A stretch of DNA of 64,000 nucleotides, from assembly GCA_030272155.1 (NCBI GenBank), contig CP126205.1, positions 2,902,501 to 2,966,500 on the forward strand. The letters are read 5' to 3'. Below, piece by piece: positions 8,297 through 63,931 of the stretch. Below the pieces are notes generated by a model. The model was not told the DNA's origin. It saw nothing but the letters and a program-made list of their open reading frames with translations, and did not search any database. This DNA comes from Tetradesmus obliquus. Taxonomy: Eukaryota; Chlorophyta; Chlorophyceae; Sphaeropleales; Scenedesmaceae. Within the stretch, counting starts at the first letter, position 1. Every line of letters begins with the position of its first letter. Both the position numbers and the translations under genes were made by a program.

Positions 8297-11200
8297 ATGG
8301 CAGACTACTCGCTCGCCAAACCAAATGACCCGCCAGCGTCTGGATGGAAGTTGAGGGGCTTGGTAGCAGTAGCTGAATCACGCATTGGGTTGGCAGCGAT
8401 CAACTGGTCTAACAACAGGAGCTGCCCGGGACTGCTGCAGGCGAGCACCCACCTGTCATCGGACTTTAAGCCTGCTTGATCGTTGCGAAGCAGCGCGCTG
8501 ACCGATTATTGTTTTTTTTTTCAGAATACAAGGCAGAGGAGCTATCCAGAGGAGCCCAGGTGAGAGCATCTCGGAGTTGACTGCTGCTCGGGCCTGCGTC
8601 TGTCCTGCTGCTAATCCACTTGAGTAATCGCTTGCAGGAGCCTGGGCATCCCGCCAGCGTTTGACGTGCAGCCACAGGAGTGCGATGCGACGCCTACGCG
8701 GCCCTGCAGCAAGTGTTGCAGCGATGAGCAGCTGTCAGACAGCAAGCAGGAGCAGGTGGTTGACTCGCCGGATGCCCATGCAACGCTTGAGGCTGCACTG
8801 CACAGCTTGGGCCATTCAGGCACCACTCTGTGCAGCACAGCGTCGAATGCAAGGCCTACTGTGCTGGACTACCACTATGCATACGAGCACGGTGAGCGGT
8901 TGTACCACCGTGGGCTGTACAGCATGTTGAATTTGCCAAATGCTGTTGATGGCTGATAAATCAGGTGGTTGCACAATGAACCTGAAATTGGCCTGGATTG
9001 GTTTCTTTTCCTGTCGTGAACTGAACACAAAACCGTGAACGAAGCCGCTGTTGCGTGTTGACCGTGCCTGCCTGGCACTGCTGTGCTTGTGCAGTGCTTG
9101 GCATGCATTGGGGTGCTGGGTGCTTGCATTGTTTGGCAAGCTGTGTCATTGTTGTGCTGTGATGGCAATTGTTCAGATTTGCTGTATCACAGGCCTGCCT
9201 AGGCAGCAGCATTGCATACACCAGCGCAAGGCATACCCGCTGATGGCAGTTGCACCGCAGCCTAACTGCTGCGACAGCTGGTGGTGGCAGCAATGCGCTC
9301 GAAAGGTGCAGATGTACAATCATTGCATATGCGCCTGTCAAGAGACGAGCTCAGAAACAGTGTACGTTGTGCAAATGCATCTACGTGTTCTTCACTGTTT
9401 CTATCTCATTGCAACGAGTTGCAGAAAGCATACTTGGTAAAAGCACAATGCAACACAATGCTCACTCACATATTCCGATGGACTCCATCCATCGGGTAAA
9501 TCCCAGTCTCGCTAGATGCACAGCTCTCATTTTCACTTCCAATCACCCTACTGTCTCTTCTCGCAGGCATGATCACTCCGAGCCAGGTGGCAGACCGCGT
9601 GATCGCTTTCCTGGAGCGCCTGAACCCGGACTTCCATTTCCTGATTGCATACGACGCAGCGGACATCCGCGCGCAGGCAGCAGCAGCAACAGCGCGCTTC
9701 GCAGCCGGCAGCAGCCTCAGCGTGTTTGATGGAGTCCCATACGTGGTGAAGGACTGCCTTGATGCGCTGCCTTACGAGACCAGCTACGGCACCACCTTCA
9801 TGGGCAAGCTGTGAGTGACGCAAATAACTGTCATTTTGGTATGTTATATGTTATTTTGATTTCGATCTCGTGGAGGCCAAGCAGTGTCAACCCCAACGGT
9901 GCCTACCAGCTGTGCTGTCCTGGGTATGTGCAACCTGTATGCCTGGGTTAATGGGCGGCGGGAGCAGCTGGGTGCTCTGCTGATGCTTACTTTCTGCTCC
10001 TGCTGCTGCTGCCGCTGCCGCTGCTGCTGCTGCTGCCGCTGCCGCTGCCGCTGCTGCTGCTTCTGCTGCTGCTGCAGGCGCCCTGTCACAGCAGATTCGC
10101 CATGTGTGGCTGCGCTGCGCGGCCTGGGCGGCATGCTGCTGGGCAAGGCTGCACTGCCTGAGACTGGCGCCATGGGGCACAGCATGAACCCTCACTTCGG
10201 AGCCACAGCAAACCCGCAGGTGCGATTCATACAATATGATGAATTCAGGTTGCAGTTCGCTGCTGTCACCATCAGGCAGTTGGAGTCGGCGTGCTGCAGG
10301 CTGTGGTTGGTTGTGGTGCATGCATCGTATGGTGCGTCGCCAGCATGCACACATTGTGCCTGTTTTGGGGAGGGTGGGCTGCTGCTGGGCAAGGCTGCAC
10401 TGCCTGAGACTGGCGCCATTGGGGACAGCATGAACCCACACTTTGGGGCCACAGCAAACCCACAGGTATGATACATATGCTGTGATCTTGATGTTGAGTT
10501 CATTCGCTGCTGCACCATCATGATAGTTGCTGGCAGTTGGAGTCGGCGTGCTGCAGGCTTTGGTTGGTTGTGGTGCATGCATCGTGTGGCACGTTGCCAG
10601 TCTGCACACATTGTGCCTGTTTTGAGGAGGGTGGGCTGCTGCTGGGCAAGGCTGCACTGCCTGAGACTGGCGCCATGGGGCACAGCATGAACCCCCACTA
10701 CGGAGCCACAGCAAACCCGCAGGTGCGTTGGTTGTTGTTGTTTGCTGCACTCCTGGCGCATGGTAGTTGCCACCGGCATGGCAGTTGGCGCCGGCGTGTG
10801 CTGGCCACAGGCTTTGGTTGGTTGTGGTGCATGCATCGTGTGGTGCGTTGCCAGCATGCACGCATTGTGCTTTTGTGTAGGTGCCGTGATCTTGAAAGCC
10901 GCCATTGGTTGAACCATGCCGTTGTTGTACGTCATATGACATTGTTACATTGTTACACCTCGGTTTCACCCTCCTGCAGGACCCCACCAAAATGGCTGGA
11001 GGCAGCAGCCGGCTCGGCAGCAGCAGTGGTGGTGGGGCTGTGCCCTATTGGCATCGTCTTGAAAGCCGCCAATCATGCTGTTGTTGTACGTCATATGACA
11101 GTGTTACATTGTTACTTTCATTTTTTTGCAGGACCCCACCAAGATGGCTGGCGGCAGCAGCGCCGGCTCAGCAGCAGCAGTGGCGGTGGGTCTGTGCCCG

Positions 11201-13621
11201 ATTGCGATTGGCACTGATGGTGGCGGCTCCGCACGCATCCCAGCCAGCTTCTGCGGGGTGGTGGGCATGAAGCCAACAAAAGGACGCCTGGCTGACGACC
11301 ACGGTGCGTTGAGTGGCTGTGATGCAGTTGGTGTTCAGACCGTTGCTGTGTCTACTGTTGTTGGCTTGAAGCCAACCAAGGGGCGCCTGGCTGACGACCA
11401 CGGTGCGTCGTGATTCTCTCTTCGCTGTTTGAGGCAGCTATGGATTGTAATCCAAGGTTGTGCTGGAGTTCAAGTACGGCTGTGTCTTGTGTTGCTGCGG
11501 GTGCATATGTCTGTTCAGCAGGCTGTGTGATGTGCTTGTTTGTGGTTGGCAGGCCTAATGTGCACAGATGGTGGCGGCTTGGCGCGTATCCCTGCCAGCT
11601 TTTGCGGAGTGGTGGGCATGAAGCCGACAAAAGGACGCCTGGCGGACGACCACGGTGCGTTGAGGCGCATGTAGAGTTTGTGTTGGCCTGCGGGTTGCGA
11701 AGTGAAATGCTGCTGTGACTCAGCCAGCTTCTGCGGGGTTGTCGGCATGAAGCCAACCAAGACGCGCAGCTAAGGTTGCGGTGGTTGTTGGGTTGCAGAT
11801 GCTGTTGTGGTCGGTTCAGCTTTTGCAGGGTTTTCGGCATGAAGCCTACAATAGGGCTCCTGACTGGCAACCACGGTCCTATTCCTGGCAAAACAAGGCT
11901 TCTGTTTCGTCTTTTCACTGGCCACTGCGCCCGTCACTGCTGTGCTGTCTCTGCAGCTGCGCACGGCGGCTACTCAAGCACCATTGAGACATGCCCTATT
12001 GCTGGCAGTGTAGCAGACGCCACGCTGCTGTATGCAGTCATGGCAAACATCAGCTACCCAACCAGCAGCATGCCTGACATCAGCAGCAACAAGGCCCTGC
12101 CAAAATTGGCAGCAGCAGCAGCTGCAGAGGCGGCAAAGCAGCCGCCGCGGCCGTTGAGCCTGCCAAGGTGAGCTGTGAGGCATGTAGCTCCATAACAGCA
12201 GCAGCAGCAGCAGCCGACGCTGACGCTGCCCAGGTGGGCAGTTTTAGACAGCAGCAGCAGCAGCAGCAACAGCAGCACCACCACCACCAGCAAAGCAGCG
12301 GCATGCAGTCATGGCCAATATAGCTTATATTAGCTACCCAGCCAGCAGCATGCCAGACATCAGCAGCAGCAGCAGAAGCGGCAAAGCAGCCGCCGCGGCC
12401 ATTGAGCTTGCCGAGGTGGGTAGTCCGGGACAGCAGCAGCAGCAGCAGAGTGCCATGCATGGAAGCACAGGCTACAGGCACATTGCTGCTGGTCGCCTGC
12501 TGCAACATGCTTGCTTGCCTGCCTGCGTCTGAGTCCGTTGAACTGCTGCTCTTGCGGCTTTCTTACCACGTTGCATGTTACAATGCGCAGCAATGCACTG
12601 CCGTTATGACATTGCCGCTACACTTGCGGCTGCCTGCCTTGTCTGCAGCGAGCTGCTGCCGCTGCAGCCTGGCAGTGCAGTGACTGCAATGCATCGCCTC
12701 TCTGACGTGACTTCTCAAACTTTGGATGCGCCTACCTGGCCGCCTGCCTGGCTGCCTGCCTTGTCTGCAGTGAGCTGCTGCCGCCGCAGCGACAGCAATG
12801 CATCGCCTCTCTGACATGACTGCTCAATTGTTGGATGCGCCTGCCTGCCTGCCTGCCTGCCTGCCTTCCTGCCTTGTCTGCGTGCCTTGTCTGCAGCGAG
12901 CTGCTGCCGCCGCAGCGACAGCAATGCATTGCCTCTCTGATGTAACTTCTCAAACTTTGGATGTGCCTACCTGGCTGCCTGCCTAGCTGCCTGCCTAGCT
13001 GCCTGCCTTGCCTGCAGCAACAGCAATGCATCGCCTCTCTGACATGACTGCTCAATTGTTGGATGCGCCTGCCTGCCTGGCTGCCTGTCTGTCTGCCTGT
13101 CTGCCTGCCTTGTCTGCAGGGAGCTGCTGCCGCTGCAGCCTTGCAGTGCAGTGACTGGGGAGTATGTGGTGGAGGGGCTCACCCCCCTCAAGGGCCTACG
13201 GCTGGGAGTGTTCAGGCCGGTGAGCGAGCAGTGGCGTGGCAACTGTGTTTCGGACTGCTTCCGGCGGCGTTCAAGCAGGCTAGCAGCACCTGTGGGTGTG
13301 GGCGTGGATGTTTGTGCGCTGGACTGGGGAGTCATCAGCAGCAGCATCGACGCCATCGGCCCCGTGGCCCAGTGGAGCGGCAACAGAAAGGGAGCACTAC
13401 ACCATCATGTTTGCAAGCATTACATGGACGGGGGAGTATGTGGTGGAGGGCACTGCCCGATTGCAGCGGGCCAACCACTGCAGCCCTGCCGTGGGAATGA
13501 CCAGCAATCATTGCCCCTGTGCCGGCATGCTGTGTGCTGCTGCTGCTGTGCAGTGGGCCAACGACTGTAGCCCTGGTGTTGCTGATGCACTGAAGCACGT
13601 GCCCCTGTGCTGCCGTGTTTG

Positions 13622-13660
<39 letters not shown>

Positions 13661-13733
13661 GCAGTGGGCCAATGACTGCAGCCCTGGTGTTGCTGATGCA
13701 CTGAAAGCACGTGCCCCTGTACTGCCGTGTTTG

Positions 13734-13772
<39 letters not shown>

Positions 13773-13844
13773 GCAGTGGGCCAATGACTGCAGCCCTGGT
13801 GTTGCTGATGCACTGAAGCACGTGCCCCTGTGCTGCCGTGTTTG

Positions 13845-13880
<36 letters not shown>

Positions 13881-15159
13881 GCAGTGGGCCAACGACTGCA
13901 GCCCTGGTGTTGCTGATGCACTGAAGCACGTGCCCCTGTGCTGCCGTGTTTGTGCTGCTGCTGCTGCTGCTGCTGCTGTGCAGCGGGCCAATGACTGCAG
14001 CCCTGGTGTTGCTGATGCACTGAAGCACGTGCCCCTGTGCTGCCGTGTTTGTGCTGCTGCTGCTGCTGCTGCTGCTGCTGTGCAGTGGGCCAATGACTGC
14101 AGCGCTGGTGTCGCTGATGTGCTGAAGCAAACCCTGAGCCGACTGGAGGTGCTGGGTGCTGCTGTTGTGGACATCAGCCTGCCAGATCTGGACCTGGTGC
14201 AGGTGCGGCTCGTCAAAGTAACATGTTACAAATAGTGTTACAGTGCTGATTACTGACATTGTTAGGTCAAACTGAGTAATGCCAGCTTGCAGCAGCTGAG
14301 CGCTGCTGTTCTTGACTTCAGCCGGCCAGATCTGGACCTGGTGCAGGTGCGGCCAGTCAAACTAACATGTTTCATAATATGTTATGGTGCCAGTATATGT
14401 AGCAATGTTGTATGTCAGAGGAACCCAGAAACCCAAGCTGGAACGCCAAAGACTTGTGAGATTTACCTGCTGGTCGACAAGCGCACAACCCTTTCTGCGA
14501 CTGCTTGAACCACGTGTGCTGCACAGTGGAAGCACAGCTTGCATCCTGTCACTGTGTGCGTGTGTTTGCATTACTGCGCTGCGCTGTGTGGCTGCAGGCG
14601 GGTCACCTGGTGACATACACGAGTGAGATGGCTGCTGATGGCATGCACAACTTATGAACAAGCAAACTTGGGATGCTGATGTTTGCATGTGTGTGCAACG
14701 CTGCGCTGTGTGGCTGCAGGCGGGTCACCTGGTGACGTACACGAGTGAGATGGCTGCTGATGGCATGGCGGCTGGCTGGCTCAAGGACTGGAGCCTGCGC
14801 AGCCAGGTGCGCAGCAGCAGCATCAGCAGCAGCTAGCTGCTGCAGCAGCAGCCCTGTGACGTGAATAACAGCGCAAGCATCAGCTCCAGCAAGCATACAG
14901 CAGTACCAGCAGCAAGCAGAAGCAATGTGTTGCAGCACACTTGGAAGAGTGACAAGCAGCGGCAGCAGCAGCGAGCAGCGAGAGCTAGACACTTTTTCGT
15001 GCATGCATGCAGTGCTGAAGCAGTCGCTAACGTATGCCTGCAGAAACAAACTTGGCTTAGGTGCCATCAACTGCCTCTTAAGCTGGTCCTTACAGCCACA
15101 ATGCTGCTGTTGCTGCTGGCGGTAATGTACTGATGCTGCCACATGTGCTCCTGCGACCG

Positions 15160-15191
<32 letters not shown>

Positions 15192-15443
15192 CTCAACCTT
15201 GACACGCGGCTCTTCTACTGCAGTGCCCTCAGCTTCACTGATGATGACTACACACAGGCACAGGTGCGGCAGCAGCAGCAGCAGCAGCAGCGCCACATGT
15301 GTCAATTGTCAGCCCCTGTCTGATGTCGACCTGCCATCACTTTCGCTGCATGCTTGCCTTCATCTCCGTGCAAGCATGTGTGCTGTGCCTGCTCCTGCTA
15401 ATTCTCGTGCATACCTCCGCATGCTGCCGCAGCGCTGTGAACA

Positions 15444-15501
<58 letters not shown>

Positions 15502-18102
15502 AGCGTATGCGCACACGCGCACTGGCCAGCTTTCAGGCGGCGTTCCAGCACTGCGACATCATCGTCACACCAGCCACTCCTACAGTGGCGCCTGCCATGC
15601 CGGAGCAAGCCAACACCACAGGTGCGTGTACAGTTGCGGTGCTTTTGAGGTTTTAGGGCACTTGACGAACAGCTGCCAGCCACCCCCACAGTGCTTTGGA
15701 GGTTTTAGGGCACTTGAACAGCTGCCAGCCACCCCCACAGTGCTTTGGAGGTTTCAGGGCACTTGGACAGCTGCCAGCCACACCCACAGTGGCGTTTGCC
15801 ATGCCGGATCAGGCTGACACAACAGGTGCGTGTGCTGCCGCACTCGGCACACCCGTCTTATTTGGGCAAACGTCTATGTGTGTGGGGCAGCATTGAGCCA
15901 GCCACACCCACAGTGGCGCCCGCCATGCCAGAGCAGGCTGACGGAACAGGTGCGTGCACAGTTGCGGTGCTTTTGAGGTTTTTAGGGCATTGAACAGCTG
16001 CCAGCCACACCCACAGTGGGGCCTGCCATGCCGGAGCAGGCAGACACAACAAGTGGGTGTGTCATGCATGGAGACGGGCACATGCCGCCCTGCAGGCCGC
16101 ACCTGTGCCTTCTCTAGCTCCCTGAATCTGGCAGCAACTGCATGCAAGCCAATCTATGCAAACATAACTCTTCAGTTTGCATTTACAGTCTGTGTTTTGT
16201 ATGACTGCCGTTGCCGCTGCTGCTGCCGGTACTCCTTGCAGCAGCTCCCCAGAAGGTTGTCTGACACGAGTACATTTGATGTGGCGCAGCGCTTTACCTA
16301 TGCTGCCACTGCTGCTGCTGCTGCCGCTCTACTCTGTGCTCCGTCCTTTCAAGCAGGCGTGTTTGACATGGCGTACAGCTTTTCAGCGATCCGCTTCACA
16401 CCGGCCGCTAACTTCACCATGTACTCACGGCTCATGCTGTGTCTCATTGTTGCTGCTGCTGTGCCTCATTGCTGTGTGCAGGCGTGTTTGACATGGCGTA
16501 CAACTTCTCAGCCATTTGCTTCACCCCGGCCCTGACCATCACCCTGTACTCACGACTAGTGCTGTGTCTCATTTCTAATTGTCACTGCTGCTGCTGCTGC
16601 TGCCGTGCAGGCGTGTTTGACATGGCGTACAACTTTTCGGCGATCCGCTTCACCCAGGCCGCCACCTTCACCGTGTACTCACGACTAGTGCTGTGTCTCA
16701 TTTTCACTGCTGCTGCTGCTGCCGTGCAGGTGTGTTTGACATGGCGTATACTTTTTCACCGATCCGCTTCACCCAGGCCCTGCCCATCACCGTGTACTCA
16801 CGACTAGTGCTGTGTCTCATTGTCACTGCTGCTGCTGCTGCTGCTGATGCTGCTGATGCTGCTGCTGCTGCCGTGCAGGCGTGTTTGACATGGCGTACAA
16901 CTTCTCAGCAATTCGCTTCACCCAGGCCGCCAACTTCACCGGGCTGCCTGCGCTGGTGCTGCCAGGGGGGCGGCTGATGGGCATGTCGCTGCCTGTGGGG
17001 TGAGTGCCTGTTGCTGCTACTGCACACATCAGCATTCAACATAAGATGCTCCTTCTCTTGAAACCAAATTGATTAACACTCTCAAACAACATCTTCAGAA
17101 AGAATGTTCAAAGTTAAGACCAGCTTCACCGGGCTGCCCGCGCTGGTGCTGCCAGGGGGCCGGCTGATGGGCATGTCGCTGCCTGTGGGGTGAGTGCCTG
17201 TTGCTGCTACTTTACACATCAACGTTCAACACAAGCAACTCCTTCTCCTGGTTGTGACAATAATAATGGACTTACTCTCAAGTCAAAACTTTGCAATTCG
17301 CATTTTGTCTTTAAGATCACATTGTCCAGAGTTCAGACCACCTTCACGGGGCTGCCGGCGCTGGTGCTGCCAGGAGGCCGGCTGCCGGGCATGTCACTGC
17401 CTGTGGGGTGAGTGCCTGCTGCTGCTACTTCCCACATCAGCGTGCAACACAAGCAACTCCTTCTCCTGGTTGTGACAATATTATTGGACTTAGTTCTCAA
17501 GTAGGAATTTTCGAAAACGCATTTTGTCTCAAAGATCGCATTGGCCAGAATTAAGATTTACTTTACCGGGCTGCCCGCGCTGGTGCTGCCAGGGGGCCGG
17601 CTGATGGGCATGTCACTGCCTGTGGGGTGAGTGCCTGCTGACCTTACTTAATTTAATCAATACAAGGCTGCTACTGCTGCTTCGGCTGGTCAAGATCATG
17701 CAGCGGCAGTTGCTGCTGCTGCTGTGGTGGGTTGCGTTGCGGCTGATTTGGCGTCACTTGCTGCTGTGTGGTGTAAGTTTACCCGCCAACAAGCCGAGAC
17801 CATGGCATTCATGCCTAACACCTGCCCACTTGTCTGCCTGCCTGCCTGCAACCTGCTGCTGCTGTCGGCACTGTCCATCTCTTCCCCCTTGTCCTGTCCG
17901 CAGCGTGCAGTTCATCGGCAAGCCCTGGGCAGAGTCCAGCCTGCTGCGCACAGCAGCAGCACTGGAGCAGCAGATGCTGGAGGACGGCCTGCCTAAACCG
18001 CTGCCGGGACTGGCCATAAACCCCATCGAGTGTGCGGTCGGGGTGCACCCTAAAGCGCGCGAGCTCACTCAGAAGCTCTGGGCGGCCCGTTACAAGAAGT
18101 GA
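8297..18102 (+). CDS. Fatty acid amide hydrolase-like amidase, paralog 1 (catalytic residues intact)
   Basis: Amidase-signature serine hydrolase of the plant FAAH type, expected to hydrolyse N-acylethanolamines or other acyl amides. Phase-consistent exons: 8297-8440, 8525-8559, 8638-8891, 9567-9810, 10078-10219, 11132-11303, 11957-12167, 13120-13219, 14086-14202, 14720-14806, 15192-15263, 15504-15621, 16879-16999, 17904-18102 (671 residues). The Ser-cisSer-Lys triad is complete: Lys206 ([10 protein letters not shown]), Ser282 (GGSSAGS) and Ser306 ([10 protein letters not shown]), within one residue of the numbering I recall for Arabidopsis FAAH (205/281/305). [11 protein letters not shown] near the N-terminus also matches the plant enzyme. 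Exon 1 needs a GC donor (CAG|GCGAGC) and is the weakest part; exon 12 uses a TAG acceptor. Introns are unusually long because most contain copies of neighbouring exon edges. Tandem paralog follows at 21223. Confidence 0.88.
10137..10722 (+). repeat. Three tandem copies of the FAAH1 exon-5 end plus donor
   Basis: Copies coding [20 protein letters not shown] and ending in CAG|GT lie near 10137-10219, 10379-10467 and 10637-10722. Only the first is joined to the exon body; the others lie in the intron and keep a good donor. Confidence 0.8.
10905..11170 (+). repeat. Two copies of the FAAH1 exon-6 acceptor edge
   Basis: CAG|GACCCCACCAA(A/G)ATGGCTGG occurs at 10980 and 11132, each preceded by the same CGTCATATGACA-NTGTTACATTGTTAC leader. 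The first copy is frameshifted after GGSS; the second continues into the full exon. Confidence 0.8.
11225..11885 (+). repeat. Five copies of the FAAH1 nucleophile-exon end
   Basis: Segments coding (P)[20 protein letters not shown] recur near 11240-11303, 11345-11403, 11563-11655, 11723-11765 and 11815-11885, with increasing decay. The third has its own acceptor (TTGGCAG, exon from 11553) and donor (CACG|GTGCGT), and codes [10 protein letters not shown], with Leu in place of the nucleophile Ser. Confidence 0.75.
12170..12425 (+). repeat. Partial copy of the FAAH1 exon-7 end
   Basis: [18 protein letters not shown] of exon 7 recurs as [20 protein letters not shown] near 12300-12420, embedded among CAG-rich runs. 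Confidence 0.65.
12640..13150 (+). repeat. Array of about five ~125-bp units carrying the FAAH1 exon-8 acceptor edge
   Basis: Each unit has GCAATGCATCGCCTCTCTGA, then a (TGCC)n pyrimidine tract, then CTGCAG and GAGCTGCTGCCGC, the start of exon 8. Only the last copy (13120) continues into the exon. The TGCC tetramer expands differently in each unit. Confidence 0.8.
13530..14130 (+). repeat. Six tandem copies of the FAAH1 exon-9 acceptor edge with (CTG)n tracts
   Basis: Units of roughly 85-125 bp: (CTG)n, TGTGCAG, then sequence coding WANDCS(P/A)GVADALK, then GTGCCCCTGTGCTGCCGTG. The last copy, at 14086, alone reads on into the rest of the exon ([20 protein letters not shown]). CTG number differs between units. 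Confidence 0.9.
14130..14350 (+). repeat. Duplicated FAAH1 exon-9 donor edge
   Basis: The segment coding PDLDLVQ with its CAG|GTGCGG donor is present at about 14150-14208 and again at 14300-14352. Confidence 0.75.
14595..14800 (+). repeat. Duplicated FAAH1 exon-10 acceptor edge
   Basis: GGCTGCAG|GCGGGTCACCTGGTGA and the sequence coding [16 protein letters not shown] occur twice; the second copy (14720) continues to the donor. Confidence 0.8.
15550..16050 (+). repeat. Tandem copies of the FAAH1 exon-12 donor edge
   Basis: CCAGCCAC(A)CCCACAGTGG...ATGCCGGAGCAGGC...ACA(A)CAG|GTGCGTG recurs about five times after the first, functional copy that ends at 15621. Confidence 0.8.
16350..16935 (+). 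repeat. Five copies of the FAAH1 exon-13 acceptor edge
   Basis: CAG|GCGTGTTTGACATGGCGTA (one copy reads GTGTGTTT) starts at about 16355, 16484, 16612, 16730 and 16879, each coding VFDMAY(S/N/T)FSxIxFT. The last copy reads through into [11 protein letters not shown]. Confidence 0.9.
16925..17635 (+). repeat. Four copies of the FAAH1 exon-13 donor edge
   Basis: GGGCTGCC(T/C/G)GCGCTGGTG through CTGCCTGTGGGGTGAGTGCC recurs at about 16938, 17128, 17350 and 17570, separated by ~200-bp units that include intron sequence. Confidence 0.9.
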
Positions 18103-18335
18103 AGTGCAAGATAGTTAAATGTGGATCTGGCAGTACAAGTACCCCAGGCAGTACGATTTCCTGCCACAAATGAGCTCACTCAGAAGCTCTGGGTATCCCG
18201 TTACAAGAAGTGAGATGTTCCGTACCCCAGGTGTTGTTGATTTGGCAGTACACTTGAGTACCCCAGGCAATACGATGCCATGCCACGTGTGAGCTCGCAC
18301 AGTGGCGTGTGGGTTACAAGTATGCTTGTGGATTG
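18055..18335 (+). repeat. FAAH1 stop-codon region repeated in the 3' flank
   Basis: GAGCTCACTCAGAAGCTCTGGG through TTACAAGAAGTGA at the end of the CDS recurs ~116 bp downstream (18171-18213) and, decayed, near 18291-18325. GTACCCCAGGCAGTACGA is interleaved. Confidence 0.85.
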
Positions 18336-21222: not shown

Positions 21223-24200
21223 ATGCCGGAGCCCATCGTGGCACAAATCACGCTTCGCAGCGCAAATAGTATCAAAAACCAGGATGAGGTCGAGAGCCTG
21301 GCAGCAGCGCTCACTGCTGCTCTCAAGCTGAAGCAGAGCCATGCGGGCACTGCTCTCAAGCTTGCCGTGCAGCTCGGCGAAGCTCAGTCCAAGGCAGCCA
21401 CTGCCACAGATGAGGCGTTCAAGTGCTCCAAGCTGCCCTTCACGCAGGTGCGGGTCACCCGACAGCAATTGGCGGGAAAGGGCAGATATCATCTGCCACG
21501 GCGCCGGCGTATACTGGCAGTCACGCATTGAATCACATTAACCAGATAAGTGATTATTCACCTTTAGAAAACGTTTTGATGAAATGGCGTCATCGATGCT
21601 GCTGTCCTGCAGGCCCTGAAGGACAGCTTCTCGCAGGCTCGCCCTGCCACAGATGCCGAGCTGGGAGTGGCATCTAAGAATGCTGAGGAGCGCGTGGCAG
21701 CTGCACTCAAGGCCATGGGCCACAACGGCTACACACTGGTCTCAACGCCGCCCAACGTGAGGCCCACTGTGCGGGACTACCACTACTCCTACACACAGGG
21801 TGCGTGCAGCAGCGGCGCTTGCTGTTGCGTGTGCTGCAGCATGGGTGCTGCTGACAGTGCGGGCGGCTTGCTTGCACTGCAGTGCCTGTGCTACTGGCAC
21901 AATACTGTTACCTGCTAGATGATTGCACGTGCAACACCACTGAGCAAGACCGTCAAGAGCCTGCTGTGCTCTTTGGTGCTGTCAAATGCTGCTGCAAGGC
22001 ATGACTACGCAGCAGCTGCACTTCAGCACAGCTTCTTCTGCTCTGCACCAGCAGTGCATCAAGCAATCATGCAACCCCCTTCATTGCATGATCACCGCCA
22101 CCTGGTCATCTCAGTGTGTTCCACAATAATCTCACTTTCCTGCAGGCATGATCACACCCACGGCAGTAGCGGAGCGCCTGGTGTCTTTCCTGGCCAAGCA
22201 CAACAGCACCTTCAACTGGCTCTCAGAGTACTCTGCTGACCACATCAAGCACCAGGCAGCAGCAGCAACGGCGCGCTACGCAGCCGGCAAGAGCCTGAGC
22301 GTGTTTGACGGCGTGCCATACGTGGTGACAGACTGCCTTGATGCGCTGCCTTATGACACCAGCTGCGGCACCGCCTTCATGGGCAAGCTGTGAGTGACAA
22401 ATGACTGTTATATAAAAAAACTTAAGAATAAAAAGGTGATGGACCACCTGGAAGTGCTGCCCTGTGCTTGGGCCCCTGTGAATGCTACATGCTGCACCAA
22501 ACCATCTGTCACACATCAGGGTGATATGTTAGACGTTCAGTGCTCGCTTAGGATGTAAGACAAATATATGTAAGTCACCAGCACATCTCAACTGCCCCAT
22601 ACATCAGCCGTGCCGTTATATTCAGCTTGCAAGGCATGTTCTCCTGCAGCTATGTGCCAGCCTGCTTGCAGGACAGCTCCTCTCATCACCCGCACCCCTC
22701 TTTTTCCATGCTCACCATCTGACACCTCGTACATCCCTGCTGTTATCTCTCTATCCTTTTCAACACACACAACCAGCCGCCAGGCCAAGGCAGATGCCCC
22801 CTGCGTGGCGACCCTACGCAGCATGGGTGCCATTCTGCTTGGCAAGGCTTCCATGCCAGAGCTCAACTCGCCTGCAAGCTCTAGCAGCAGCACCCCCAAC
22901 CCCCACGACGCAGCCAAGACAGCCGGCAGCGGCAGCGCAGGCTGTGCATCAGCCGTGGCATGCGGGCTGTGCCCAATTGCGATTGGCGCGGATGCTGGAG
23001 GCTCCATGGGCGTTCCTGCAAGCTTCTGCGGTGTGGTGGGGCTGCGGGCCAGCAGCGGGCGCCTGGCGGAGGATGCAGGTGAGCTGCATGTTTGACCAGA
23101 TGTTGACCGGATTGTTGACCAAAGACTCCATCTTCTCTGGCAGAGCATATTGAGCAGAACTTCACTTAAGCTGTCTGCTTTGTTGGCAAGGAACAAAACC
23201 GCATAACAGTGTATCTGCTTAATGACCACTGCTAACACCAACTTGTGGTGTTTTGAACTCGCTGCAGTGGCCGCGGGCAGTCAGTCCAGCCTGACAACCA
23301 CCAACCCCATCGCCAACAGCGTGGGCGACACGCTGCTGCTGTACGCTCATCCCTTAGGACTCACTGATTACGCCTCACTCCAACCTGTTATCTTGTTGTT
23401 ATTTTCGTATTCGCTGCAGCTGCCACGGGCAGCCAGTCCAGTCTGACCGCCACTACCCCCATCGCCAACAGTGTGGGCGACACTCTGCTGCTGTACACGG
23501 CCATGGCCAACACCAGCTACCCAGGCGCAGCAGCACCCCGCAAGCTGGCCCTGCCAAAGGAGCTGCTGCCAAAGCAGGAGCGCTGTGCCGCCAACAGCGA
23601 CTGGGTGCTGGGCAGTGAGCAGCCCCTGCTGGGCAAGAAGATTGGTGTTTGCCGGCAGGTGGGTTTGAACTGGGGTCCTGGGATGGATTTGGGTTTAGGA
23701 CACTGCTGGTTGCACTGCCAACAGCGACTGGGTGCTGGGCAGTGAGCAGCCCCTGCAGGGCAAGATGATCCGCGTGTGCCGGCAGGTGGGTTCAATTTGG
23801 GGTCCTGGGATGGATTTGGTTTTAGGACACTGCTGGTTGTGCCGCCAACAGCGACTGGGTGCTGAGCAGTGAGCAGCCCCTGCAGGGCAGGAAGATCGGC
23901 GTGTGCCGGCAGGTGGGTCTTGAGTGCTGTTGAAGATGCAGTATACAACCTGACCTTGTGTTGCCACTGCTGCTAGCTGCGGCTGCGTGTTCCTCTGTTC
24001 CTGTGCCTGCAACTGTGCAGTGTCTGGATGAGAGCAGCGTGGCTGTGAGGGAGGTGCTGGCAGTGACACTGGCAAATCCTTGATCCTGACCTCATGTTCC
24101 TGCTACTGCTGCTGCTGCTGCTGCTCCTGCGCGCAGTGGCTGGATGACAGCAGCGTGGCTGTGCGCGAGGTGCTGGCTGTCACACTGGAGCGCCTGCAGC

Positions 24201-24437
24201 AGCTGGGTGCTGAGCTGGTGGACGTGAGCCTGCCAGACCTGGAGCAAATCCAGGTGGGCTGTCACTTTAGATTGCGTTACTTTAAATGTAACATTGTTTG
24301 AATGTGTGGAACCTAGCAACAGCAGCTGCTGGTGTTTGGCGTGCGCGCAGTGATGTTGCTGCATGGCCCTGCGGGGCCCCGTCAGGCACGATACGTCGGA
24401 CTAGTTCCTGCCGCCAGAGCGCATGTCCCCACCTTCC

Positions 24438-24470
<33 letters not shown>

Positions 24471-25609: not shown

Positions 25610-25642
<33 letters not shown>

Positions 25643-28589: not shown

Positions 28590-34701
<6,112 letters not shown>

Positions 34702-51057: not shown

Positions 51058-52626
51058 TCAGCGAGCATGCAACAACACAGGCTTGCCGGCCTGGTGACTG
51101 CATTTGCACCCATACTCAAACACCAAACACAGCACATGACAGACAATGTATGTGTGCCGCTGCCTCACCATGTAGAATGCCTCGCACAGCTGCTTGTATT
51201 TCTTTTGGTTGTAGGGCCTTGGGCCGCTCTCTGCAATGAGCTTCTCAACGTCGGGCTATGCATTACCAGCCATTCAAAATGACAAAACAAATGACAAAAC
51301 CCGTGTCTGCGTGCTCACTGCTCGAACGTGGCCTTAGTGTGATGTTATAAAACACAACACGCACCCCAAAACAAAACCCTTTAGATGCCTCACCATGTAA
51401 AAGGCCTCGCACAGCTGCTTGTACGTCTTCTGGTTGTAGGGCCCTGGGCCGCTCTCCGCAATGAGCTTCTCAACATCGGGCTGTGCATTGTCGGTGAGGC
51501 AGGCGTAGATCACGCTGTGGTGAACCAGCGTCTTGTGGCCATACAGGGTGGTGTACTTTGTGATGTGGTAGCGCCTGCAAGGGTTTTGAGCAAAGTACAA
51601 GAACAGCATTCTCAACGTCGGCCTGTGCATTGTCGGTGAGGCAGGCGTATATCACGCTGTGGTGAACCAGCGTTTTGTAGCCATACAGGGTGGTGTACTT
51701 GGTGATGTGGTAGCGCCTGCAAGGGTTGCAGCATAACTGAAAGAGCAGCATTTTGAGAACAGAATTGTCGGTGAGGCAGGCGCAGATCACGCTGTGGTGA
51801 ACCCGCGTCTTGTGGCCGTACAGGGTGGTGTACTTGGTGATGTGGTAGCGCCTGCGTGAGGGTTTGTTTTTGCGTGGGCAGACCAACAGGCTGAACGTGA
51901 GGGGGCGGTGGTTGTTGGTGTGAGGTACTTCACGCGGCGATGCGGCAGCAGCCATGTGCCGTTGCTTGTTCATTGCAACAGCAGCAGCAGCACCATATCA
52001 CATGACCTCCACACGTAGCCCTTTCCCCTTGTGTACACACTCGTCAGTTGGCATCCCCACATAGCACGTCGTGTAGGCCAACCTTTCATGTAACCGTTAC
52101 AAGGTTTGGCTTCCATACACCCCAAACCACGCCCATAAACTTTACCTAAAACCCTTCCTGTACTCACTTGTCAACCGGCATCCTGATGTAGCACGTCATG
52201 TATGTTGTCTCCACATCCGGAATCTCCGCCACCTTGCACAGGATATCCGTGCGGTAGTTGCCGTTGCCCAGAGGCACAACCTGCGGCAGAGGAGCCTCCC
52301 CACCAGCCTTTGCAATAACTGCCTCGTCATTCTTGTCATTGCAGCTTGCGCTGTTGTGATTACAGCAATCTGTGCTGCTGCACTTGCCGGTGTTGCTCAT
52401 GACGAGCTGCTTACGCAGATTTTCGACCAGAACATGAGGCTCTGTGACTGAGGCTGCTGTTGCTGGTGTGACTGCCGGCTCTGCTGCTTCTGCGATGATC
52501 GCAACAGCACCGGCATCTGCTGCTGCTGCTTTTGGTGTGTTGGCTGGTTTCAGCAGGTCCAGGATCTGCCTGAATTGCTGGCCGCGGTCATCGCCTGTGT
52601 TGATTGATTAAAGCAATTCAGCACGC

Positions 52627-52677
<51 letters not shown>

Positions 52678-53420: not shown

Positions 53421-53489
<69 letters not shown>

Positions 53490-54619: not shown

Positions 54620-54652
<33 letters not shown>

Positions 54653-55538: not shown

Positions 55539-55579
<41 letters not shown>

Positions 55580-56018: not shown

Positions 56019-56028
56019 TCAAGGTGTC

Positions 56029-56084
<56 letters not shown>

Positions 56085-56310: not shown

Positions 56311-59300
56311 TTCGACTCGAGCGTCACTAACAGGCGCGCGCCGTCACGCTGCGCGCTGACCTGTTGCAGCATAGCATGTAGGTGAGGTGGGAGGATGCCA
56401 GAGCAGAGGCAGCAGCAGCAGCAGCGCAGCAAAGATTATCAGGTACTTGCGCAAGGCACTGCTGTGATTCGCGTCAGTAACAGGCGCACGCCGTCGCGCT
56501 GCCCGCTGACCTGGAGATGTACATCAGGGGTGCGGTAAATGCCAGAGCAGCAGCGGCGGCAGCAGCAGCAATGGCAGCAGCAGCAGTGGTTGTCAGGTAG
56601 CTGCGAATAGCACTGCTTCAACTCGAGCGTTACTAACAGCCGCGCGCCGTCGCGCTGCCCGCTGACCTGCCACATTGCAAAGTGTGCAGGCGAGGTGGGC
56701 AGATGCCAGAGGCAGCAGCATCAGCAGCAGCGGTGATTGTTGGGTAGCCGCACAAGGCACTGCAGGCAGCGTGTGTCGGGGTGCACGTGGAATGCTGCTG
56801 CACGAAAATAGCACAAAAGCAGACCAAACACAGCGGCAACTCACCGGGTACGAGCCAATGGCTAGCTCCCCGCCCCACTCCCTGCAAGCGTGTCCAGCAG
56901 CGGCGCCAACCAATGCACTAGCACGCAGGTCGCATTGCCTGTACAGCTCGACAGCCAAGTACACTACCAGACCCCCATTGCTCAAATAAGATTGAGAATA
57001 ATCCATGCAGCTCACCGGGTAGGAGCCAATTGCAAGCTCCCCTCCCCACTCCGCTGCAAGCGTGTCCAGCAGCGGTGCCGAACGCACATCCTCTAAGTCA
57101 CTCTTTGTAAACTGCAGTCACACTCAACCCAATCCCCACCATACACATAGCTGATCATGGCTGCGACAGCAGCTCCAACAGCTCACCGGGTAGGAGCCGA
57201 TGGCCAGCTCCCTGCCCCACTCTGCTGCAAGCGTGTCCAGAGCGGCGCCAACCAATGCACTAACACGCAGGTTGCATTGCACGCAGAGCTCTACAGCTAA
57301 GTACACTACGAAACCCCATTGCTCATGTAAGATTGTTACAAGAATCCATGCAGCTCACCGGGTAAGAGCCAATCGCAAGCTCGCCGCCCCACTCCGCTGC
57401 AAGCGTGTCCAGCAGGGGGGCCACTGCCGCCTCATCATCTGCTGCCAGCCGTACCACCCTGTTGCTGAAGGGCGCTAGCTGCACCGCTGCCTGCAGCTCT
57501 AGAGAGACTGCCGCCCACTTCTGCCGCAGCAGGTGCGGCACGCCTGCAAGCAAGCAAGCAAATGTCCAGGCAGGCAGAGGAAGCACACTTGAGGTAAGTC
57601 ACAGAGTGACGCGCATACCAACTGCATAGCAGCTCCGTTCCTTTCCCTGTTCACACCCAAATGCAAGCGGCGAGCCGCTGTGTACTCGCTGCTTGGCGGC
57701 TCGCTGGCAGCACCCACCTGGCAGCACAAACACGTTGCGCACCGCCACCAGAGGGAAGGGGCTCACACTGCCGTTGTCAGCCAGGCATGGGATGAGGCGT
57801 GTGGTGTCGTCAACGCGCAACTTTGCATGGCATGTGGCCTTGCGACAGCTTGCCAAAAACAAGCCCACACGCATGTGCTACCACGCACAAGTCAAACACA
57901 CGCTCACCTGGCAGCACGAACACGTTGCGCACAGCGACCAGTGGAAAAGGGCTCACACTGCCGTTGTCAGCGAGGCAAGGGATGAGGCGCGTGGTGTCGT
58001 CCCCTGGAGCATCTGCCATCTTCAAATGCGCTGGTGTGGCGTTGTCTCCAAAGTAGCTGAGCAGCGACTGCTCCAGGTCTGGGTGCCTGCAGCCATTTAA
58101 TGTCGCAACCAGATGACAACCGTTATCATGCCAGCCGGACACACACACAGCAGCTACGCCCAGCACTATTGCAGCACGACAGACACAAATGCTGCTGTTG
58201 CCGGCCCAGCCACCAAGCGCAGGCCCCCAACCAAACAGCCCCAACAGCAAGCGAAACTTACATGCTCGCAGACATTGTGTCTCACCGTATCACGTCCACG
58301 CCGAATGCCGCTGCGATGCCCTCCATTGTCACATCATCCAGTGTGGGACCAACGCCTCCGCTGGTCAGCACAGCAGCACAGCTGGCGGACAGGCTTGCCA
58401 CCTCGCTGGCGATTGCTGACACATCATCCGGCACGCACACAACCTGCGACACAACAGAAACAGGCAGAGGGTTTGTGTTGGGCTATGCGCGGCAGCGCAG
58501 CTGGCTGACAGGCTTGCCGCCTCATTGGCAATGGCTGACACATCATCCGGCACGCACACAACCTGCGAGAACAGCATAAACAGCAGGCAGAGGGTTTTGT
58601 GTCAGGCTGTGCACAGCAGAATGGCAGCGCAGCTGGCTGACAGGCTTGCCACCTCACTGGCAATGGCTGAAACATCATCCGGCACACACACGACCTGTGG
58701 TGACAACAACAGAGACAGGTGTAAGGTTTTGTGTCAGGCTGTGCACAGCAGATTGGCAGCGCAGCTGGCTGACAGGCTTGCCACCTCACTGGCTATTGCC
58801 AAAACGTCATCAGCAACACACACTACCTGCCTGATGTCCAAAAACACAGCAGGCAGAAGGCTTTGCACCAACAACAAGGGCAGCGGGCAGAAGGTTTTGT
58901 AGTGCTGTGCACAGCAGCGCAGCAGCGCAGCTGGCTGACAGGCTGGCCACCTCACTGGCTATCGCCGACACATCGTCCGGCACACACACGACCTGTTGTA
59001 ACATGTCATGCAGCACAGACGCCGCAGGAGAGCAGGCAGAAAAGAACGTGAGTTTTTGAACGAGAGATTGCCTTTGTGCAATCGGTGACACGTCATCAGG
59101 GACGCAGACGACATGCGGTGACACAACTAAAGAAATCACAGCAGCCAAAGCAGGCAAGAATATGTTGAGTTGTGGCACGCAAGGCAGCGTGGCAGCGCAG
59201 CCAGCTGAGAGGCTTGCCACCTGGCAGTGGCTGACACATAATCTGGCACACACACGAACTGCGGTGATGCAGCCACAGCAGCTTCAACAACAGCAGATCA

Positions 59301-62300
59301 GGCATGGCAGGTATGAGCAATGTGATGTGTGCTGTGCATGTGACGTGTGTGCAAGGCTGCCACGCCACGCCCACGGTTGCCCCGCCCCGCACCTTGCGCA
59401 CCGTCCAGCCAATCCTGTGCAGCTCCCGGCACAGGAAGGGCGCATTTGAATCTTCAACCTTTCTGCTCAGCACCTCATCTCCAATGACCACAATGCCAGC
59501 AGCCCAGCTCATGCTGCTGGCCACACCGGCAGCACCACCCAATGAGGGTGCCACAAATATGAAACCCTTGTAAAGGCATGAAATCCAAGCAGGCTTACTA
59601 CAGCAACGGCACCATCGCGCCCCTCACCTTGCGCACCGTCCAGCCAATCCTGTGCAGCTCCTTGCACAAAAAGGGCGCGTTCGCGTCCTCCACTTTGCCG
59701 CTCAGCACCTCATCGCCAATCACCACAATGCCCGCAGCCCAGCTCATGCTGCTGGCCACACCGGCGGCACCACCAGATGGCAGGCTGTCGCCACGCCGCT
59801 GCCGGCAGCAACAGCAGCAGTTGTTGCAGGATAGCGGGTGGATGGCGGCGGGCGGCGGCAAGTGCAGGGTCAGAGTCTGCAGCTGATGTGCTTGGGAGGA
59901 GTTATGGAAGGTGCTGCTGCTGCTGCTGTCAGTGAGAGTGCTGCTGCTTGCGGTGCTGATGCTTGCTGCAAGCAGCAGGAGGATTGCAGGAGGCAGCAAC
60001 GGTGCATGTGTAAAGGACTGGCCTTCAGCTCAGGGTGTCAGCCATGGCTGATACCTCTATAGGCTACAGTTGAGCGCAGCCAGCTGCATCATGGATAGTG
60101 GCGGCTAGATGCAGCACAGCTGTACACACTGTGTCGCCCTCAAAATGGCAGCATGTGCTGGCACGGTCGCATCAAATTTAGTACGAAGCTTTGCATGATC
60201 ACCTGCTTGGTGGCGCGGCCGGCCCTCTCCAGCCTGCCGTATGCCAAGGTTCCCTAAAGAACAACACCTGAACCCTCGCTTAGGGGGAAATTTAGAAACC
60301 TACACCCTGGCCGCACCTGCTTGGTGGCGCGGCCGGCCCTCTCCAGCCTGCCGTCAGCCAGGATGTACGCCGGCGCAAAGCTGCCATCTGACTTCTTCAG
60401 AGCACTGCAAACAGCAGCAAAGCAGAGCACAAAGTCCTGGTTTCAGGTTCAAGGTTATGGGCTCTGGTGTGTTGGTGGCACTATGACATGTATACAGGGC
60501 TGCAGGCGACAGCAATGCAGCGCAGCGCAGCGCAGAGCAGCGCAGAACAGAACAGGGAAGAACATGATGTTTTAGCGACTTGACATTTGCGACCTCACTG
60601 TTGGTGACGGCAGCTACAGCAACGTGGATACATACATTGCCACAGCAGGAAAAGTGCAGACCTCCGGTGCGCACCTGTTTGGCAGGGTGTTGTGCACACC
60701 ACCAAGGCTGGTGTACCCCTGGTCATACAGGCAGCAGCACGGCAGGCAGCCTAGTCCCTCCCCAAACCTTAAAACAACCCTAAAACAAACAGCTCAATGC
60801 GCACCTGTTTGGCAGTGTGTTGTGCACACCACCAAGGCTGGTATAGCCATGGTCATACAGGCAGCAGTAGGGCAGGCAGCAAACCCGCAGGAAGCCTGAT
60901 CCATCCCCAAACCCTAAAATCACATAGCGCAATGCGCACCTGTTTGGCAGGGTGTTGTGCACGCCACCCAGGCTGGTGTAGCCCTGGTCATACAGGCAGC
61001 AGTAGGGCAAGATCAGGGTTTTGGAATCGGCCCGACCTTAAGCCTCCTAACCCTAACACACACCTGTTTGGCAGTGTGTTATGCACGCCGCCAAGGCTGG
61101 TATAGCCCTGGTCATACAGGCAGCAGTAGGGCAGGCAGCAGGCCCGTAGGAAGCCTAACCTTCCCAAAACCCTGAAAAACAGCCTAATGCACACCTGTTT
61201 GGCAGCGTGTTGTGCACGCCACCAAGGCTGGTGTACCCTTGGTCATACAGGCAGCAGTAGGGCAGGCAGCAGGCCCGTAGGAAGCCCCATACATCTGCGT
61301 AGCTCCAGTCCAGAATGGGGTTTATGCGCATGAAAGGGGGCCAGCCAGCGCTGCTTGGACAGAAGTACTCCTGGCCGTCAGCATTTGGGTCACCCCTGCA
61401 TTTGTAACAGTTACGTACCATGTTATGTAACATGCACTAGTCCAGAATGGATTTTATTCGCATTAACCGCGGCCAGCCAGCGCTGCTTGGACAGAAGTAC
61501 GCCTGGCCGTCAGCATTCGGGTCACCCCTGCAGATGTAACAATTACATGACATGTTATGTAATGTGTGTGGGTCCAGGTTGGCATTATGCGCATGAACGG
61601 CGGCCAGCCGGCGCTGCTTGGGCAGAACTACTCCTGACCATCGGCATTCGGGTCGCCCCTGCAGTCATAACAGTCACATAACATGCGCTAGTCCAAGACG
61701 GGGTTACTGCGCAGGCTGAGCAGGGGTTCAGGGAATGCTGAGGGGGTCGAGGGGCCATGTGCTGTGACCAATGAGGCTGGCCAGAACTTGCATGATAGGG
61801 AGTGACGGCAATGCCAAACGTTTTTGCCCTCATGAAACCAACACCATGAACTAGGCCCTGAACCCTATACCCCGCTCGCCACACCTGCGTGTGCCCAGCA
61901 CTATCGCTGTTGTGCCTGCCTGCTGCAGGGACTCCTCCAGGCCTGCCTTGCAGACATAAACCACCTGACCCCAAAACTTCACCCCAGAAATCACTCCAGA
62001 TAAACACCAACCCTGCTTGCCGCACCTGCGCATGCCCAGTACTATTGCTGCTGTGCCTGCCTGTTGCAGGCACTCCTCCAGGCCTGCCTTCCAATGAGCA
62101 TTATACATAATGGCTCAACCCTAAACCCCTTGACGCTGGTCACATTTCTCGCACCTGCGTGTGCCCAGAACGATGGCTGCTGTGCCTGCCGGTTGCAGGT
62201 ACTCCTCCAGGCCCACGCCAATGAAAACAACACCTAAACACCTCACTTCAACCTCTCAACCCTGTCTAAATTTCTCGCACCTACGCGTGCCCAGCACAAT

Positions 62301-62522
62301 AGCTGCTTTGCCCGCTTGCTGCAGGTACTCCTCCAGGCCTGCCTTCCTGCCTGCAAGGTACTTATCACCTAAACATTCAACCATGAAACCTAAACACTAG
62401 CCACACTATTCCCACCTGCGCGTGCCCAGAACGATGGCTGCTGTGCCTGCCTGCTGCAGGTACTCCTCCAAGCCTGCCTTGAAGTCTGGGTGTGTGAGGA
62501 AGTGCGTGCTGAGGCCATACCT

Positions 62523-62558
<36 letters not shown>

Positions 62559-63643: not shown

Positions 63644-63689
<46 letters not shown>

Positions 63690-63757
63690 CTACGCCGTTC
63701 GCCTGCTGACTATGTTGCTGTTGTACGCTTTGCAGCTCCTGCTGCATGACATGGTTG

Positions 63758-63816
<59 letters not shown>

Positions 63817-63931: not shown

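What the first reader, a model, noticed from the sequence alone, without database searches (positions are those of the whole stretch)
8297..63931. Introns built from tandem copies of the adjoining exon edges in essentially every gene
In the eight large genes I could join exons into complete, phase-consistent models using one copy of each exon. In nearly all of those genes the introns hold 1-6 extra copies of the neighbouring exon edge with its splice site (unit 50-250 bp, from near identical to strongly decayed). Acceptor-side arrays have the full exon attached to the last copy, donor-side arrays to the first, so the extra material falls in the intron. Most acceptors read CAG|GT and most donors CAG|GT, so a duplication across an AGGT site supplies new splice sites. 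This fits the known tandem-duplication model of intron gain, but here it appears to act as a general, continuing mode of intron growth. It also creates dozens of decoy or alternative exons.
Basis: partly seen in the sequence, partly recalled or inferred. Interest (0 to 1): 0.92.

Follow-up and report, generated by a model that had tools for sequence, protein, structure and literature searches.

The report
Introns filled with copied exon edges
In this green alga many introns are padded with extra copies of the neighbouring exon's edge, splice site included, so genes carry look-alike splice sites that the cell must ignore; this helps to explain how introns grow.

Summary
The core observation is real and not confined to the window. 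The genome is Tetradesmus (Scenedesmus) obliquus or a close strain: a gene matches the crystallised D1 protease. In the window 36 of 70 introns, and in four other stretches 66 of 176, hold at least one copy of their own exon edge (my gene-finder models). Copies are local, spaced about 124 nt, up to six per junction, mostly diverged, with GT kept in 61 of 73 and AG in 56 of 63. Junction-spanning clusters number 132, intron-only 5; simulated random duplication with selection and detection predicts about 40% edge, observed 96%. Two reader claims fail: CAG|GT acceptors are 48 of 246, and the AGGT intron-gain signature appears in 3 of 246 per side (0.7-0.8 expected). This is intron growth, not gain. 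In D1 protease only the last copy is in the protein. New: the outermost copy often loses homology within 12 nt of its splice site, and two of three stop-codon copies end at the stop codon. I infer short tandem duplications whose exon block stays alive because one copy is under selection; weighs against that.

The parts
2760..6949 (+). Na+/H+ exchanger gene: control gene with no edge copies; one exon-internal duplication (4914-4953 / 5040-5079)
   Evidence: PF00999 on a fragment; models; clusters
8638..18102 (+). FAAH-A (amidase) gene, ten junctions with edge copies, and a copied stop-codon edge at its 3' end
   Evidence: paralogue of FAAH-B by DNA similarity; my gene finder joined it to the exchanger gene
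10126..10881 (+). donor-edge array ([31 protein letters not shown]), 2 extra copies, true donor after 10219
10890..11204 (+). acceptor-edge copy ([12 protein letters not shown]...), true exon starts 11132
11211..11877 (+). donor-edge array ([17 protein letters not shown]), 4 extra copies, true donor after 11303
13535..14129 (+). acceptor-edge array, 5 extra copies spaced 99-112 nt, CTG tracts before the acceptors
15570..16061 (+). donor-edge array, 3 extra copies, true donor after 15621
16353..16941 (+). acceptor-edge array ([19 protein letters not shown]), 4 extra copies
16930..17640 (+). donor-edge array ([23 protein letters not shown]), 3 extra copies spaced 190-219 nt
18061..18302 (+). copy of the last coding exon's end with its stop codon (TGA 18100-18102), no splice site involved; homology runs on past the stop
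21223..26549 (+). FAAH-B gene, hand model of 11 exons, 6 of 20 junctions with edge copies
23251..23496 (+). acceptor-edge copy, true exon starts 23420
23590..23918 (+). donor-edge array, 2 extra copies spaced 127 and 127 nt
24017..24188 (+). acceptor-edge copy, true exon starts 24137
24528..24735 (+). donor-edge copy with 64 nt of homologous intron flank, true donor after 24559
25149..25329 (+). acceptor-edge copy, true exon starts 25286
25681..25991 (+). donor-edge copy, true donor after 25765
28590..34871 (+). cation-efflux (CDF-type) gene, 9 of 26 junctions with edge copies
   Evidence: PF01545 on a fragment
31676..32265 (+). donor-edge array, 2 extra copies spaced 239/238 nt; inner flanks identical, terminal flank unrelated
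33239..33389 (+). young donor-edge copy, 42 nt at 97.6%, homology ends 8 nt inside the intron
37081..37360 (-). donor-edge array of the TRAP-beta gene, 2 extra copies spaced 120 nt, edges 100% identical over 37 nt
   Evidence: PF05753
39878..40539 (+). donor-edge array of an LCM-domain methyltransferase gene, 4 extra copies
   Evidence: PF04072 on a fragment
48428..49165 (-). acceptor-edge array, 5 extra copies spaced 117-139 nt
51467..51855 (-). acceptor-edge array, 2 extra copies spaced 142/135 nt
56836..57423 (-). donor-edge array, 3 extra copies spaced 171-172 nt
   Evidence: PF00994 on a fragment
60668..61286 (-). donor-edge array, 4 extra copies spaced 124-135 nt
61869..62484 (-). donor-edge array, 4 extra copies spaced 126-141 nt

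Best explanation
SHOWN: introns of Tetradesmus obliquus contain local, tandem, mostly decayed copies of roughly 124-nt units that straddle the boundary between exon and intron; the copies usually keep their GT or AG; many arrays have the form (edge + spacer)n + edge, the outermost copy lacking homology beyond its splice site. INFERRED: (1) an ordinary short tandem duplication of about 100-150 nt arises near an exon. (2) Selection removes events inside exons; an event across an exon edge is tolerated because the copy falls in the intron. (3) The exon copy cannot decay, because it codes, so it remains a standing master sequence: unequal exchange and occasional gene conversion between it and its copies keep re-making the exon-derived block, while the purely intronic part drifts away. 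(4) Recognisable homology therefore ends where selection on the master copy ends: at the splice-site consensus, or at a stop codon. (5) Duplications without an exon edge have no master copy and fade, so surviving arrays sit at exon edges and introns grow from their ends. (6) The spliceosome uses the copy joined to the full exon, probably by exon definition.
For: Edge preference: 132 edge, 5 intron-only, 5 exon-only, 10 intergenic, 2 flank clusters; random-duplication simulation gives edge fraction 0.38-0.42, observed 0.96. Spacing of the 85 pairs in the 80-170 nt range: mean 124, sd 18, the same whether homology stops within 12 nt of the junction or runs on (123 and 124), with exon part and spacer negatively correlated (-0.68), as for one tandem unit. 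Regular arrays, for example five spacings of 129 nt and five of 149-152 nt. Inner copies share 81 or more nt of outward flank in 31 of 57 arrays, the outermost copy 12 nt or less in 33 of 57. Divergence of the exon part does not predict whether flanks are alignable. Stop-codon edges are copied too, 3 of 18, two of them with homology ending at or about 4 nt past the stop codon, which a splicing-based mechanism does not predict. Copies are not coding-constrained: 50 of 58 indels break the frame, stops 10 of 2848 codons against 14.3 expected at 6% divergence. In D1 protease the mature protein contains the last copy only; gamma-COP joined without copies is collinear with 5a1u_E.
Against: In young decoy pairs with clearly homologous flanks, edge and flank diverge almost alike (7.4% against 10.7%, n=19, p=0.03), so ongoing re-making of the edge must be infrequent. 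Some young single donor copies have unrelated flanks (33239/33348 at 97.6%), easier to explain if only the edge was copied. Start-codon edges show none of 21, though predicted starts are uncertain. Gene conversion was never observed directly. Third-position changes in the true exon seem to exceed what a neutral copy should allow, unexplained. The stop-codon cases are only three. All sample-wide counts rest on my own small gene finder.
Confidence: 0.45

Rival explanations
1. Edge-bounded copying: the primary event copies only the exon edge plus the splice-site consensus into the intron (templated filler at a break, or a template switch that returns), so the terminal flank was never homologous; arrays then grow by unequal exchange.
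For: In ten arrays that I picked, outermost copies with edges 79-100% identical to the inner ones (seven of ten above 90%) have flank identity 0.465-0.574 against a mean of 0.469 for random 70-mers. Single donor copies lose homology within 12 nt in 22 of 36. Young donor pairs with no flank similarity exist.
Against: Nine of 36 single donor copies have more than 30 nt of homologous flank (the control's 99th percentile is 38 nt, so a few may be chance). Four of the ten terminal flanks exceed the random 95th percentile of 0.533, a hint of decayed homology. Spacing is the same for both kinds; two stop-codon edges show the same kind of boundary; it gives no reason why donors and acceptors should both be cut at the consensus.
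Confidence: 0.22
2. Plain random tandem duplication plus purifying selection plus longer visibility of copies whose partner is a conserved exon; nothing else.
For: Predicts loss of exon-internal events and the geometry; intergenic duplications with offsets of 99-200 nt exist.
Against: Simulation gives 38-42% edge, observed 96%. Where the noncoding part itself is recognisable over 40 nt or more, edge 59, intron-only 4, intergenic 8. In FAAH-B (6) and the gamma-COP region between 3.3 and 10.6 kb of the C1 stretch (11) all 17 clusters are edge clusters; that they sit at homology-supported exons I judged by eye.
Confidence: 0.12
3. A lesion or break hot spot at exon edges (chromatin, R-loops or nicks near splice junctions) targets duplication there.
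For: Edge enrichment among young arrays: 27 against 16.1 expected, maximum 26 in 300 shifts; short duplications from staggered breaks are an established mutation class (PMC8355091, abstract and passages).
Against: CTG or CAG tracts near a junction do not favour copies (Fisher p=0.54 for CTG at acceptors, 0.84 for CAG and 0.41 for CTG at donors; CAG tracts at acceptors are rarer where copies exist, p=0.003); stop edges are hit as well.
Confidence: 0.13
4. The copies are functional: decoy or alternative exon edges kept for splicing regulation.
For: GT kept in 61 of 73 and AG in 56 of 63; decoy exon parts diverge less than flanks (10.1% against 26.1% over 202 decoy pairs; 7.4% against 10.7% where flanks are clearly homologous).
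Against: Retention is close to 0.94 x 0.94 = 0.88, my arithmetic from the 6% first/second-position mismatch; frameshifting indels 50 of 58 and near-neutral stop frequency; D1 protease and gamma-COP use one copy only.
Confidence: 0.06
5. Assembly artefact: collapsed or expanded repeats.
For: A few inner arrays are near identical.
Against: Best pairs range from 66 to 100% identity with a mean exon-part mismatch near 9% and lie in many gene models on five contigs; a published annotation of another assembly gives the same 462-nt mean intron.
Confidence: 0.02

Closest known systems
Intron gain in a potato RdRp gene by a duplication crossing an intron-exon boundary (PMC4974935; abstract, introduction and results sections read)
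   Same: A tandem duplication that spans an existing junction and carries its splice signals.
   Different: One event, and the copy became a new spliced intron with an added exon piece; here many junctions, arrays, and the copies stay inside one intron.
AGGT tandem-duplication intron gain (Rogers 1989; Hellsten 2011; seen only as described in PMC4974935)
   Same: Short tandem duplication supplies extra GT and AG sites.
   Different: Its signature is near background here (3 of 246 introns per side); existing introns lengthen instead.
Internal gene duplications (Gao and Lynch 2009; seen only as cited in PMC4974935)
   Same: Duplications inside genes, some including introns.
   Different: The array law, unit size and density found here I could not compare with it.
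Small tandem duplications from fill-in at staggered breaks (PMC8355091, abstract and passages; Schiml 2016 and Vaughn and Bennetzen 2014 seen only in its reference list)
   Same: Local direct duplications, a plausible source of the first copy.
   Different: There mostly under 100 bp; the passages seen mention no bias to exon edges and no (edge+spacer)n+edge arrays.
Introners (PMC9860276, passages)
   Same: Mass change of intron content in algae.
   Different: Copies here are local, not a dispersed family.

Membership tests
AGGT tandem-duplication intron gain | surroundings of donor and acceptor of the same intron are copies of each other | tested here: not met
   3 of 246 introns above the 99.5% control level per side, 0.7-0.8 expected; two strong single cases were printed there
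AGGT tandem-duplication intron gain | intron absent from relatives | not testable with these tools
   no relative of this alga is held; FAAH-A has two introns that FAAH-B lacks (by eye), not polarised
Junction-crossing tandem duplication (as in potato RdRp) | duplicated unit contains an existing exon-intron boundary | tested here: met
   132 of 154 clusters with at least 15 exon and 15 noncoding bases
Junction-crossing tandem duplication (as in potato RdRp) | the copy is spliced as a new intron and exon | tested here: not met
   only for the two genes compared with proteins: D1 protease, gamma-COP
Introners | similar introns dispersed through many genes | tested here: not met
   13 non-local hits within the 224 kb sample: 3 between the FAAH paralogues and 10 of one dispersed element
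Alternative-exon duplication | whole exon copied and kept in frame | tested here: not met
   exon part of the unit median 53 nt of about 120 (85 pairs); 50 of 58 indels break the frame
Staggered-break small tandem duplication | short, local, direct and adjacent copies | tested here: met
   no offset below 60 nt (search floor 30), 121 pairs at 90-150 nt
Staggered-break small tandem duplication | breakpoint chemistry (overhang fill-in, end joining) | not testable with these tools
   needs new mutations or repair mutants

The most novel reading that the evidence does not exclude
A standing master copy under purifying selection re-seeds tandem copies in the neutral DNA beside it, so homology in the copies ends exactly where selection ends, whether that is a splice consensus or a stop codon. 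If general, repeat boundaries map the limits of selection, and introns grow from their ends by repeated budding of exon edges.
Probability: 0.4. Interest if true: 0.86.

Novelty: new variant of a known kind. Interest (0 to 1): 0.76.

Why it matters
It offers a concrete, dateable source of intron DNA that could account for much of why this alga's introns are about 1.5 to 2 times as long as those of three relatives (462 against 230-302 nt). It also gives a natural test bed for splice-site choice: at 130 of 492 junctions the spliceosome faces one or more recognisable copies of the true edge, most with an intact GT or AG, and must choose by context. Long-read cDNA from a common laboratory alga would answer it directly. 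Gene annotation is affected as well: of 378 exons called by my own gene finder, 64 were flagged as shorter copies of a neighbour, and other gene finders may do the same.

Tried and rejected
Triplet-repeat driving: CTG or CAG tracts next to a junction do not favour copies. Coding constraint on the copies: suggested by true-versus-copy mismatches at codon position 3 (62% in 123 pairs, 36% in 13 further 'mid' pairs, 57% overall) and by slower first and second positions in triples, but sister decoys are nearly even (23/17/30 over 13 junctions) and indels and stops are near neutral; the third-position excess stays unexplained. Dispersed element as source of the spacers: one 587-nt array finds only itself in the genome. 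A splice-footprint mechanism looked strong when homology ended within 12 nt of the junction; part of that came from my masking of triplet tracts at acceptors, and two stop-codon copies behave alike, so I ranked it second. The circular-shift test lets shifted repeats land in exons and so is not the selection null; the simulation is closer, but it has no exchange between copies. In 'noncoding' includes decoy exon parts, so arrays with several decoys are easier to see. Counts differ slightly between calls because clustering rules differ (edge 132). Rows dropped: of 378 predicted exons 13 under 24 nt, 64 shorter copies and 4 equal-length copies of a neighbour, one pair that could not be mapped, introns outside 60-1500 nt in the intron counts. 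In one search further pairs were dropped whose exon side was not aligned within 8 nt of the junction or whose copy lay on the exon side. Rfam at gathering scores found nothing in the window.

Full report
What was checked. The window lies at G000:C15:2902501-2966500 of a 104.66 Mb genome in 17 contigs. The organism is Tetradesmus (Scenedesmus) obliquus or a very close strain: an exon of a gene on C3 is identical over 65 residues to PDB 1fc6/1fc7, photosystem II D1 protease, and the other exons of my model match that chain apart from stretches the gene finder misjudged; a paper's table lists 1fc6 as Scenedesmus obliquus (PMC2868010, passage). GC and mean intron length agree with published T. obliquus figures (57%, 462 nt; PMC5966456 passages).

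The repeats. Self-BLAST of the window gave 153 direct-repeat pairs within 4 kb. I read the DNA of FAAH-A and FAAH-B and joined FAAH-B by hand into 11 exons, complete and in phase. I then wrote a small HMM gene finder trained on these sequences (it recovers 10 of the 11 FAAH-B exons exactly, shortens one and adds two copies as exons) and ran it on the window and on 40-kb stretches of C1, C3, C4 and C5 taken at arbitrary positions (the C2 stretch is withheld and unused). It merges some neighbouring genes. Predicted exons that are shorter copies of a neighbour were set aside. All counts below depend on these models.

How common. Of 246 introns of 60-1500 nt, 102 hold at least one copy of one of their own edges: window 36 of 70, C1 26 of 44, C3 8 of 54, C4 12 of 39, C5 20 of 39; 130 of 492 junctions in all. 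Gene models differ strongly: 20 of 48 junctions in gamma-COP, 2 of 56 in one C3 model, 0 of 16 and 0 of 12 in two others. Inside the window the Na+/H+ exchanger has none.

Edges, not interiors. Of 154 clusters of repeats, 132 contain both exon and noncoding sequence, 5 intron only, 5 exon only, 10 intergenic, 2 gene flank. Shifting the repeats along the stretches gives 74.7 edge clusters on average (maximum 99 of 300 shifts), observed 129; for repeats of at least 90% identity over 80 nt 27 against 16.1, maximum 26. A simulation of random duplications with selection for exon integrity, substitution, indels and a comparable detection threshold gives an edge fraction of 0.38-0.42 against 0.96 observed. 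To reduce the advantage of having a conserved partner, I asked in which clusters the noncoding part alone is still recognisable over 40 nt at 85%: edge 59, intron-only 4, intergenic 8; multi-copy arrays may still favour edges there. In FAAH-B and in the gamma-COP region with homology support all 17 clusters are edge clusters.

Anatomy. Copies are local: across the sample only 13 non-local hits exist, 3 between the FAAH paralogues and 10 of one dispersed element, and a whole array finds only itself in the genome. Among pairs spaced 80-170 nt the distance between true edge and copy averages 124 nt, sd 18, with exon part 58 and spacer 66, negatively correlated; no repeat offset is below 60 nt, and offsets peak at 90-150 nt with a second rise at 210-280 nt. 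Copies keep GT in 61 of 73 and AG in 56 of 63 cases and lie on the intron side in 128 of 136.

The array law. In the 57 arrays with two or more copies the inner units repeat edge and spacer: outward flank homology reaches 81 nt or more in 31, and 12 nt or less in 12. The outermost copy's homology stops within 12 nt of its splice site in 33 of 57, and that of single copies in 40 of 73. Unrelated donors share a median of 3 nt (95th percentile 13); unrelated acceptors share up to 43 (95th percentile), probably because of common CTG tracts, so acceptors are less informative. In ten arrays that I picked, inner-to-terminal edge identity was 0.79-1.00 while the terminal flank was 0.465-0.574, near the random mean of 0.469; four of the ten exceed the random 95th percentile of 0.533, which hints at remnants of homology.

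Similar behaviour at stop codons. Three of 18 coding 3' ends are copied. In two of them homology ends at the stop codon or about 4 nt past it (C1 16588-16670, C5 5410-5474); the third (window 18061-18183) runs on. There is no splice site there. None of 21 predicted start codons is copied.

Fate of the copies. Exon parts differ from the true edge by about 9% in 123 pairs (15% in 13 more); 62% of the mismatches in the 123 pairs, 57% of all, are at codon position 3. In the copies 50 of 58 indels break the frame and stop codons number 10 of 2848 against 14.3 expected at 6% divergence, so they are not maintained as coding sequence. Whether flanks are alignable does not depend on exon divergence. 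Yet in young decoy pairs edge and flank diverge almost alike, 7.4% and 10.7% (n=19, p=0.03), which argues against frequent homogenisation.

Which copy is used. In D1 protease an acceptor-edge copy starts at C3:3736749, 91 nt before the true exon at 3736840; the solved protein contains only the version of the last copy, joined to the full exon (the copy's reading was taken by eye). That the PDB sequence reflects the mRNA is an inference. Gamma-COP joined with one copy of each exon aligns with 5a1u_E over 429 of 432 residues without repeat-sized gaps.

Interpretation. My preferred reading is that short tandem duplications across coding edges are kept recognisable and re-amplified because one copy is held constant by selection, so homology ends where selection ends. 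It accounts for edge enrichment, equal spacing of complete and decayed units, uncoupled divergence and the stop-codon cases, but the result and some young copies with unrelated flanks count against it; copying of the edge alone is a serious rival. Nothing here shows splicing of the copies or exchange between them directly.

Literature. The listings of searches showed no paper that describes this pattern in a green alga; the library lacks most subscription papers, and I read only a few of the listed ones. In the passages seen of PMC5966456 (12 of 40 places) it is not mentioned; the main text of PMC7590803 contains no 'intron'.

Noticed in passing
window 27688-27765: A dispersed element of about 80-125 bp: 40 other places scored genome-wide at 85-95% identity (463 candidates at first look), in both orientations; also at C3, C4 and C5 in the sample. 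Possibly a SINE or MITE (guess); no Rfam match in the window.
   Followed up: partly
all stretches: Triplet tracts are strand-biased: CAG-type in exons (3.6% of exon bases) and CTG-type in introns (3.4%); 87 of 246 acceptors have a CTG tract within 70 nt.
   Followed up: partly
window 10220-11131 and 12168-13138: FAAH-A has two introns that its neighbour FAAH-B lacks at the matching positions (by eye), and both are rich in edge copies; gain or loss not polarised.
   Followed up: no
C3:800001-840000 (L011-L014): Gene models here are almost free of edge copies (8 of 108 junctions); expression level or age might explain it.
   Followed up: no
true exon edges, all stretches: Third codon positions of true edges seem to have changed more (about 10%, inferred) than the copies did at first and second positions (about 6%) since duplication; unexplained.
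   Followed up: partly
predicted start codons, all stretches: No start-codon edge is copied (0 of 21) while stop-codon edges are (3 of 18).
   Followed up: no
C2:700001-740000 (L007-L010): The whole stretch reads N (withheld); not pursued.
   Followed up: no
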